This document shows, one piece after another, positions 13,875 to 51,871 of a stretch of 64,000 nucleotides of DNA. The stretch spans positions 2,356,001 to 2,420,000 of the forward strand of contig NZ_CP054043.1 of assembly GCF_013282725.1 (NCBI RefSeq), written 5' to 3'. The position numbers were made by a program, and so were the translations under genes. This DNA comes from Yersinia mollaretii ATCC 43969 (GTDB lineage Bacteria > Pseudomonadota > Gammaproteobacteria > Enterobacterales > Enterobacteriaceae). The notes under the pieces were generated by a model that did not search any database, was not told the DNA's origin, and saw only the letters and a list, made by a program, of their open reading frames with translations. Every line of letters begins with the position of its first letter. The first letter of the stretch is position 1.

Positions 13875-14076
13875 TATACCCATCATACTTCAAGCTGCAT
13901 GTGCGTTGGCTGCTCTTGTTATTCGGCCCATCCATGGGCCTCACCTTGTTGAGGCCGCTGCAAACAGCGTTCAAATCGGTTCCCGACCGATTTGTCACCC
14001 GAATCACTTACCTGAGTAAGCTCATCGGGATTCACTCAATTGCCGCCTTCCCGCAACTCGAATTATTTTGGGTATA
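13875..14076. repeat. ERIC element with internal insertion
   Basis: Enterobacterial repetitive intergenic consensus. Outer ends TATACCCATCATACTTCAAG and the reverse-complementary CGAATTATTTTGGGTATA are present, as are the core TCACTTAC...GTAAGCTC and GGGATTCACTC. Canonical ERIC is about 127 bp. This copy is 202 bp because about 75 bp containing its own small dyads (around 13915-13990) sits in one arm. It starts 2 bp after the dehydrogenase stop, so it would be transcribed as a long hairpin in that 3' UTR. Confidence 0.9.
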
Positions 14077-16164: not shown

Positions 16165-16200
16165 TTCAACTGGGAATGAGAATTATTATATAGACTCTGC
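16165..16200 (+). promoter_or_regulatory. Promoter of the hok mRNA
   Basis: TTCAAC (16165-16170) and TATATA (16187-16192) with 16-bp spacing place the transcript start at about 16200. That is where sequence similar to the 5' end of hok mRNAs (GGCGGGTGCTTGAAGC) begins. Confidence 0.55.
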
Positions 16201-16203
16201 GGC

Positions 16204-16218
16204 GGGTGCTTGAAGCTG
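16204..16218 (+). promoter_or_regulatory. 5' translational activation (tac) element of hok mRNA
   Basis: GGGTGCTTGAAGCTG at the predicted 5' end is the reverse complement, apart from one extra base, of CAGCTTTCAAGCACCC at 16553-16568. In known hok loci this pairing keeps the full-length mRNA silent until 3' processing. Confidence 0.7.
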
Positions 16219-16256
16219 TCTGCTTTAAGTGCTTGCATCAGGCTGAGAGTAGGCAG

Positions 16257-16318
16257 AGAAAAGCCCCGTATCAATGTTAATCAATACGAGGCCCTCTGTA
16301 ATGCACGACAACATTACG
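16257..16318 (-). ncRNA. Sok-like antisense RNA (ends approximate)
   Basis: On the minus strand a hairpin formed from 16263-16271 and 16284-16292 is followed directly by TTTT (16259-16262 on plus), a rho-independent terminator. One mismatch on the plus strand becomes a G-U pair on the minus strand, which favours minus-strand transcription. The RNA would be complementary to the start of the mok frame and repress hok translation through it. A weak promoter (TTGCCT, 17 bp, TACCGT) lies upstream on the minus strand. The 5' end is inferred. Confidence 0.55.
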
Positions 16319-16432
16319 GTAGCCTTTTACCCGCCGAAAGGCAAGGAGGCTGAAGATGCCCAAAAATACGCTTGTTTTATGTCTGTTAATTGTTTGTATA
16401 ACAGTGCTGGCATTGACATTAATTACACGTAA
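16301..16432 (+). CDS. Mok-like regulatory reading frame overlapping hok
   Basis: A 43-codon frame (MHDNITVAFYPPKGK...) starts 55 bp before hok, runs through the hok ribosome site and ends inside hok in another frame. Known hok loci have such a mok gene, whose translation opens the hok start and is the direct target of Sok. The product itself is probably not functional. Confidence 0.55.
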   Translation: MHDNITVAFYPPKGKEAEDAQKYACFMSVNCLYNSAGIDINYT

Positions 16433-16508
16433 ATCACTGTGTGAGCTACGTGCGAAAAATGGGAACAAGGAGGTTGCGGCCATTTTAGCTTACGAATCTG
16501 AACGGTAA
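16356..16508 (+). CDS. Hok/Gef-family membrane toxin
   Basis: 50-residue type I toxin. The N-terminus MPKNTLVLCLLIVCITVLAL is a single membrane helix; the family signature TRKSLCELR is followed by KEVAAILAYESE. Both conserved cysteines of the family (helix and LCE) are present. The ribosome site AAGGAGG (16343-16349) sits 6 bases before the ATG. Expression would depolarise the inner membrane. The frame is intact, with the complete regulatory layout around it (mok, antisense RNA, fold-back ends), so the locus may be active. Chromosomal copies of this family in E. coli are often broken. Confidence 0.92.
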   Translation: MPKNTLVLCLLIVCITVLALTLITRKSLCELRAKNGNKEVAAILAYESER

Positions 16509-16513
16509 GGCGA

Positions 16514-16568
16514 CCGGGCGGGGAGCAATCCCCGCCTTTCGTTGTCAGGTCACAGCTTTCAAGCACCC
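16514..16568 (+). terminator. hok 3' region: hairpin and fold-back inhibitory element
   Basis: GGCGGGGA (16517-16524) and TCCCCGCC (16529-16536) form a strong stem 8 bp after the hok stop, then TTTC. The following CAGCTTTCAAGCACCC (16553-16568) is the 3' partner of the mRNA 5' end (fold-back inhibitor). The first hairpin is probably a stability/processing element, since the fold-back sequence lies beyond it. Confidence 0.65.
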
Positions 16569-16605
16569 ATTGAGTTTTTGCGTAGTCAATTCAGGTGATT
16601 TGGAC

Positions 16606-51677: not shown

Positions 51678-51708
51678 TTAGACAAATAATCCAGATGGTT
51701 AGTATGAC

Positions 51709-51736
51709 AATGGGGGATTTTATCCCCCATTTCTTT
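51709..51736 (+). terminator. clpX terminator
   Basis: AATGGGGGA (51709-51717) pairs with TCCCCCATT (51723-51731), then TCTTTTT. Confidence 0.88.
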
Positions 51737-51752
51737 TTCCTCGCATTGTTAT

Positions 51753-51782
51753 CGTTGAATGTCAGATATTCATCCCCATATA
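51753..51782 (+). promoter_or_regulatory. Sigma-32 promoter of lon
   Basis: CGTTGAA (51753-51759), 14-bp spacer, CCCCATATA (51774-51782), very like the E. coli lon heat-shock promoter. It lies about 90 bp before the lon start. Confidence 0.8.
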
Positions 51783-51871
51783 CTCAATTACCTATTTAGT
51801 GAAATTCGTGATGATTCGCGTTTCACGAGATTTCCAGTAATCTGGCGGAAGCTAAACTAAGAGAGAGCTCT

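What the first reader, a model, noticed from the sequence alone, without database searches (positions are those of the whole stretch)
16165..16568. Apparently intact chromosomal hok/mok/sok type I toxin-antitoxin locus between ggt and the peroxiredoxin gene
A 50-aa Hok-family frame, an overlapping mok-like frame, a minus-strand terminator hairpin for a Sok-type RNA, a promoter, and complementary 5' and 3' mRNA ends (16204-16218 with 16553-16568) are all present. The gene is too short for routine ORF calling. All parts look undamaged, unlike many chromosomal hok copies, so it may still act (for example in persistence or membrane depolarisation).
Basis: partly seen in the sequence, partly recalled or inferred. 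Interest (0 to 1): 0.75.

Follow-up and report, generated by a model that had tools for sequence, protein, structure and literature searches.

The report
Intact hok/sok toxin-antitoxin in Yersinia
This stretch holds a well-preserved chromosomal copy of a classic bacterial self-poisoning gene that RNAs keep silent; it is a known kind of system, but many related species have lost it from this spot.

Summary
Window 16204-16568 is a complete chromosomal hok/mok/sok type I toxin-antitoxin locus in a Yersinia genome, with the only Hok match over the Pfam cut-off there. Rfam sok scores 105 bits (E 8e-23); Pfam HOK_GEF E 6.5e-20. The 5'/3' mRNA fold-back holds up: Yersinia, Hafnia and Serratia arms differ yet fit their own partners best. 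Folding predicts a locked full-length mRNA and, after 3' trimming, an exposed Sok-target loop, though not an opened mok start. Nine intact Yersinia copies give dN/dS about 0.12. The same ggt-peroxiredoxin gap lacks an intact hok in 15 of 24 Yersinia species; the best local tree needs 8 changes.

The mok start codon is not strictly kept: it is ACG or ATA in 4 of 9 intact Yersinia copies and ACG in 16 of 18 named Serratia copies, while the hairpin around it is held by compensatory changes.

A new member of a known kind. Expression, toxicity and any role in persistence are untested.

The parts
16187..16192 (+). putative -10 (TATATA) of the hok promoter
   Evidence: sequence reading; surrounding stretch kept in many Yersinia copies, several broken ones included; not reported by the consensus scan
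16204..16218 (+). tac-like 5' arm of the hok mRNA (first bases of the Rfam sok match)
16257..16309 (-). Sok antitoxin RNA, about 53 nt; boundaries inferred from K-12 sokC and the terminator hairpin
   Evidence: Rfam RF01794 region; alignment with annotated K-12 sokC; fold gives a 13-nt single-stranded 5' leader plus terminator stem
16316..16344 (-). putative Sok promoter: -35 TTGCCT (16339-16344), 17-nt spacer, -10 TACCGT (16316-16321)
   Evidence: my reading beside the K-12 sokC upstream region; weak match to consensus, not reported
16288..16291 (+). mok Shine-Dalgarno-like GAGG
   Evidence: sequence
16301..16432 (+). mok leader frame, 43 aa, overlaps hok by 77 nt in another frame
   Evidence: start position lies at the K-12 mokC start in the alignment
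16296..16319 (+). Sok-target hairpin: stem CTGTAATG/CATTACGG, loop CACGACAA; mok start codon lies in the 5' arm
   Evidence: covariation; loop predicted exposed in 3'-trimmed mRNA and largely paired in full-length mRNA
16343..16349 (+). hok Shine-Dalgarno AAGGAGG
   Evidence: sequence
16356..16508 (+). hok, 50-aa membrane toxin
   Evidence: Pfam PF01848, NCBIfam NF007279, dN/dS
16516..16537 (+). G+C-rich terminator-like hairpin before the 3' arm
16553..16568 (+). fbi-like 3' arm complementary to 16204-16218

Best explanation
It is a complete chromosomal hok/mok/sok type I toxin-antitoxin locus. Steps supported by sequence or by folding: the full-length mRNA is locked by pairing of its 5' end (16204-16218) with its 3' end (16553-16568); when the 3' end is trimmed, the 5' end folds locally and the Sok-target hairpin (16296-16319) forms with its loop exposed. 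Inferred from the R1 model: Sok then pairs through its free 5' leader with that loop and blocks mok start, and so hok; the duplex is cut by RNase III; if Sok runs out, mok and hok are translated and Hok depolarises the inner membrane.
For: Rfam sok 105 bits; HOK_GEF E 6.5e-20; NCBIfam PRK09738 87.2 bits, cut-off 73. Own 3' end fits own 5' arm better on average than foreign ones in Yersinia (36.8 against 21.9-29.8), Serratia (33.7 against 21.9-24.1) and Hafnia (36 against 22.8-30.5). Predicted refolding as the 3' end moves from 16568 to 16552. dN/dS 0.12 summed over 36 pairs of 9 intact copies. Alignment with annotated K-12 hokC/mokC/sokC. R1 mechanism from passages of PMC4147584, PMC8167048 and PMC2891591.
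Against: No transcript data. In the trimmed mRNA the mok start codon is predicted more paired (0.01 unpaired, 0.75 in the full mRNA), the mok GAGG too (0.07 against 0.25), and the hok Shine-Dalgarno is unchanged (0.36 against 0.38), so folding alone does not show translation being switched on. Folding of nascent prefixes gives the trimmed-like form, not a lock. The own-arm test failed for the five Citrobacter/Enterobacter/Klebsiella-type loci and for one Serratia locus; only 6 of 22 loci beat all shuffles; the energy control was not decisive. The ninth intact Yersinia copy (G005) was not, and its 3' arm departs by one base. The Sok promoter is weak. 15 of 24 Yersinia species lack an intact copy here. 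The true mRNA ends are unknown; the trimming points were mine.
Confidence: 0.9

Rival explanations
1. A silent relic: the parts are still readable but the locus is no longer expressed or toxic and is on its way to loss, as in many of its sister species.
For: 15 of 24 Yersinia species have no intact hok at this site; the best local tree needs 8 changes, 6 of them forced by well-supported branches. The nearest genome, G002, has kept only the promoter and 5' end.
Against: dN/dS about 0.12; end pairing and Sok-target hairpin are complete in the window copy.
Confidence: 0.15
2. A hok/sok locus in which the conserved thing at the mok start is the Sok-target hairpin rather than Mok itself; hok may be switched on without a normally started Mok in part of the family.
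For: Start codon ATG in 5, ACG in 2, ATA in 2 of 9 intact Yersinia copies; ACG in 16 of 18 named Serratia loci, most with a 50-aa hok. The codon's second and third bases covary with their partners (CG:11, UA:8, UG:2; GC:17, AU:4). In 35 of 106 leaders no ATG/GTG/TTG in the usual place starts a frame reaching hok. The start codon is predicted buried in the trimmed mRNA.
Against: The window copy has the ATG. 30 of those 35 have another possible start upstream or downstream, and ACG or ATA may serve as weak starts: in some Serratia copies the frame through the ACG position ends in a TGATG overlap with hok (my reading). R1 mok translation is reported as required (PMC4147584, passage).
Confidence: 0.3
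3. Chance resemblance: a short hydrophobic frame beside unrelated hairpins.
For: Hok is only 50 aa, and single-locus controls of the end pairing were weak.
Against: Independent protein and RNA family models, both far over cut-off, in the right order and spacing, and covariation.
Confidence: 0.01

Closest known systems
hok/sok of plasmid R1
   Same: Toxin family, antisense Sok over the mok start, mok overlapping hok, end-paired mRNA (R1 features from passages in PMC4147584, PMC8167048, PMC2891591)
   Different: Chromosomal and single copy; no plasmid to maintain. The R1 sequence was not fetched here.
hokC/mokC/sokC of E. coli K-12
   Same: Same order and matching Sok position
   Different: MokC is in frame with HokC, and an insertion sequence (IS186A) ends about 20 bases from the hokC stop in K-12; here mok is out of frame (43 aa) and the ggt-peroxiredoxin gap shows no such insert (my reading)
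Chromosomal hok-sok of Erwinia amylovora
   Same: Chromosomal enterobacterial hok-sok, reported lethal when strongly expressed (PMC7821729, abstract start and passages)
   Different: Different genus; its sequence was not compared here
Rfam RF01794 sok
   Same: Full-length match, model positions 1-157
   Different: None of note

Membership tests
hok/sok type I toxin-antitoxin | Hok/Gef membrane peptide with the conserved KSLCE cysteine | tested here: met
   KSLCE in the window copy and in all 9 intact Yersinia copies; importance of the cysteine from a passage of PMC9424990
hok/sok type I toxin-antitoxin | Antisense Sok gene over the mok start with terminator | tested here: met
   (sequence only)
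hok/sok type I toxin-antitoxin | Sok and hok RNAs are made | not testable with these tools
   no expression data
hok/sok type I toxin-antitoxin | mok frame overlapping hok, start inside the Sok target | tested here: met
   ATG 16301, stop 16432
hok/sok type I toxin-antitoxin | 5'-3' fold-back pairing of the mRNA | tested here: met
   controls and for other loci were weak
hok/sok type I toxin-antitoxin | 3' trimming exposes the Sok target and lets mok and hok be translated | tested here: inconclusive
   folding predicts the Sok-target loop exposed but the mok start not
hok/sok type I toxin-antitoxin | Hok is toxic and Sok neutralises it | not testable with these tools
   needs an experiment

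The most novel reading that the evidence does not exclude
In part of the hok family, including 4 of 9 intact Yersinia copies and 16 of 18 named Serratia copies, the Sok-target hairpin is kept by compensatory changes while the mok start codon inside it is given up (ACG, ATA). Sok would then act on a ribosome-loading hairpin, or on a non-standard start, rather than on ordinary Mok initiation.
Probability: 0.3. Interest if true: 0.55.

Novelty: new member of a known kind. Interest (0 to 1): 0.3.

Why it matters
It adds an apparently complete chromosomal hok/sok to a genus for which my paper searches listed no report of one. It also gives a natural comparison of kept and lost copies at one fixed site, so that the value of a chromosomal hok can be tested between sister species. 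The changing mok start codon makes the accepted need for Mok directly testable.

Tried and rejected
Duplex-energy shuffles over long flanks: dominated by the G+C-rich 3' hairpin, 71 of 1000 shuffles as good; then a stem-score test, in which 6 of 22 loci (the window among them) beat all 40 shuffles; then the own-against-foreign test. A phage origin: no match of the Hok protein in 50,697 phage records at E 1e-5. A plasmid origin: 4535 plasmid records match part of the locus, none over 80% of it in one place; the site is chromosomal and shared across the genus. A second Hok in this genome: one match over cut-off, plus one sub-threshold at E 0.34. Pfam on the 43-aa Mok: only a sub-cut-off E 0.18 match. 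Solved structures: none matched. Papers wanted but not held: PMC2887945, PMC6643237, PMC9841398 and DOI 10.4161/rna.22346, so whether mok-less hok loci are already described there is unknown.

First count of mok starts (57 ATG frames overlapping hok, 5 GTG/TTG, 16 stopping before hok, 28 no start, of 106) was replaced, which also counts frames ending within 12 bases upstream of hok: 60 ATG, 11 GTG/TTG, 17 only a downstream start, 13 only an upstream start, 5 none, of 106; 2 more of the 108 distinct leaders had no anchor.

Odds changed on checking: the main confidence went from 0.92 to 0.90 because one search does not show the mok start opening.

Full report
WHAT IS THERE. The window lies in a 4.60-Mb, single-contig genome. 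It is a Yersinia, judged from named Yersinia contigs whose lengths match those of same-genus genomes. The species was not identified. Between ggt (minus strand) and the AhpC/TSA-type peroxiredoxin gene (minus strand, PRK15000) lies a plus-strand unit at about 16204-16568. It scores 105.1 bits with the Rfam sok model over the model's full length. Its 50-aa product is a Hok/Gef protein (E 6.5e-20), above the cut-off of an NCBI naming model. It is the only match above the Pfam cut-off in the genome, and the only sok match at E up to 1.

ANATOMY. Alignment with annotated E. coli K-12 hokC/mokC/sokC places the mok start at ATG 16301. It opens a 43-aa frame ending at 16432, 77 bases into hok and in another frame. 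Sok would run on the minus strand from about 16309 to 16257: a 13-nt free 5' leader and a terminator stem. Its promoter, read by analogy, is TTGCCT-17-TACCGT; that is weak, and the consensus scan did not report it. The hok promoter is read as a TATATA at 16187-16192, also unreported by that scan.

END PAIRING. 16204-16218 (GGGTGCTTGAAGCTG) pairs with 16553-16568 with one bulged base. Shuffle tests on single loci were weak: 71 of 1000 shuffles matched the window in a duplex-energy test, and only 6 of 22 loci, the window among them, beat all 40 shuffles in a stem-score test. A fairer test asks whether each locus's 5' arm fits its own 3' end better than those of other genera. I gave it 30 loci (the window plus 29 of the 33 named ones); one had no motif. 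For the other 29, own scores averaged 36.8 (8 Yersinia), 33.7 (15 Serratia) and 36 (1 Hafnia) against foreign means of 21.9-30.5; the closest foreign pairing (a Yersinia arm on the Hafnia end) reached 35. The five Citrobacter/Enterobacter/Klebsiella-type loci did not show it (23.6 own, 23.2-25.0 foreign). One Serratia locus (L070) scored only 19; its 3' flank holds a repeat-like block. The Yersinia rows are close kin and not independent. The ninth intact Yersinia copy (G005) was not in this test, and its 3' arm departs by one base.

SWITCH. Partition-function folding gives 5'-3' pairing of 1.00 and no target hairpin (0.01) for ends at 16568-16590. For ends at 16520-16552 the local 5' stem reaches 0.81-0.97, the target hairpin 0.82-1.00, and its 8-base loop is 0.93-1.00 unpaired (0.28 in the full-length form). 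This matches the lock and the exposed Sok target described for R1 (PMC2891591, PMC4147584, PMC8167048; passages). Two results do not match a simple on-switch. In the trimmed form the mok start is more paired than in the full mRNA (0.01 against 0.75 unpaired), the mok GAGG is too (0.07 against 0.25), and the hok Shine-Dalgarno hardly changes (0.36 against 0.38). Folded prefixes from 16325 to 16500 already show the target hairpin (0.99-1.00), so equilibrium folding gives no lock on the nascent RNA. The trimming points were my choice, and folding is no proof.

SELECTION AND LOSS. In 25 Yersinia-genus genomes (own included), 11 have a Hok match above cut-off. The ggt-peroxiredoxin gap could be read in 24 (no ggt was found beside the peroxiredoxin gene in G021), and a full-length hok lies there in 9. 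Among the other 15: G015 keeps only the first ~21 codons. G007, G008, G012, G017 and G018 keep the leader and the hok start and then run into a block whose core is a dispersed repeat (57 places in the window's genome at up to 2 mismatches). G010 has lost the coding part; G002 keeps the promoter and 5' end; G006 keeps the 3' end and G011 a partial leader. G019 matches only over query bases 2-62. G009, G013, G016 and G022 gave no DNA match to the locus; the printed alignment was cut in the middle. On a tree of the flanking genes the best fit needs 8 changes between intact and lost, of which 6 are forced by well-supported branches (7 of 21 inner branches under 80). Well-supported sister pairs with one intact and one lost copy are G014/G015 and G023/G019; G004/G018 and G005/G002 are less firm. 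Among the 9 intact copies, summed dN over summed dS is 0.12 over 36 pairs, maximum pair 0.26. So hok is under protein-level constraint where kept, and dispensable on the scale of species. The broken G018 copy also shows a C-A mismatch in the target hairpin (sequence), as expected once constraint is gone.

MOK START. The start codon is ATG in 5, ACG in 2 and ATA in 2 of the 9 intact Yersinia copies, and ACG in 16 of 18 named Serratia loci, the other two (L061, L066) having ATG. The opposite arm changes with it. On 22 aligned leaders (9 Yersinia, 11 of the named Serratia, Hafnia alvei and one unnamed Hafnia-like; 21 distinct), the 8-pair stem has 87.5% paired cells against 77.0% shuffled, 21 two-sided changes against 6.7, and a covariation score of 0.370 against 0.186, each reached by 0 of 500 shuffles; slid versions fall to 28-50% paired. 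Two measures were weaker: pairs with a change on both sides (4 against 2.4; 37 of 500 reach it) and further pair types (7 against 6.7; 295 of 500). The leaders were chosen by genus and related rows are counted. One search was a separate alignment of 42 of 97 leaders that I picked; no count rests on it. Over 97 distinct hairpin segments, own arms score 13.3 against 9.2 swapped and 9.25 shuffled, and 41% of own pairs exceed the 95th percentile of shuffles (6 of 108 leaders that the pattern missed were skipped). Over 106 leaders, 60 have an ATG frame from the usual place reaching hok, 11 a GTG/TTG, 17 only a downstream start, 13 only an upstream start, 5 none. The sample was built from strong sok matches and Hok relatives, Serratia being over-represented. 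The window has one GGCAA unit before hok where seven other Yersinia copies have two, which fits its mok being out of frame with hok; in four relatives mok and hok are in frame, 70-71 aa.

COMPARISON AND NOVELTY. It meets the sequence-level features of hok/sok. Covariation in hok mRNAs is known (PMC2891591, passage and its reference list). Searches for hok/sok with Yersinia or Serratia, and for mok-less hok (one search listed 10 of 32), listed no paper that by its title or abstract start describes this locus. I saw search listings, abstract starts and passages only, and several key papers are not held.

VERDICT. An ordinary but well-preserved member of a known kind, with a moderately interesting pattern of repeated loss and a start-codon puzzle that is testable in laboratory E. 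coli.

Noticed in passing
window 13995-14076: Copy of a dispersed repeat with palindromic core TCACTTAC..GTAAGCTC; 57 places in this genome at up to 2 mismatches. The same core lies in the block that interrupts hok in five other Yersinia species. A link to the published YPAL repeat (PMC2847712, passages) was not tested.
   Followed up: partly
window 51699-51793 (-): Rfam sraA small RNA, 81.8 bits.
   Followed up: no
L012 (G013), L013 (G017), L014 (G014), each at 1501-1605: Lower-scoring Hok matches (41-56 bits) elsewhere in three Yersinia genomes, not at the ggt-peroxiredoxin gap.
   Followed up: no
L070 (Serratia silvae), just after hok: A repeat-like block with a similar palindromic core lies where the 3' pairing arm should be, and the end pairing scores low there.
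   Followed up: partly
window 16340-16344: One GGCAA unit before the hok Shine-Dalgarno, against two in seven other Yersinia copies; this fits the different frame of mok relative to hok.
   Followed up: yes
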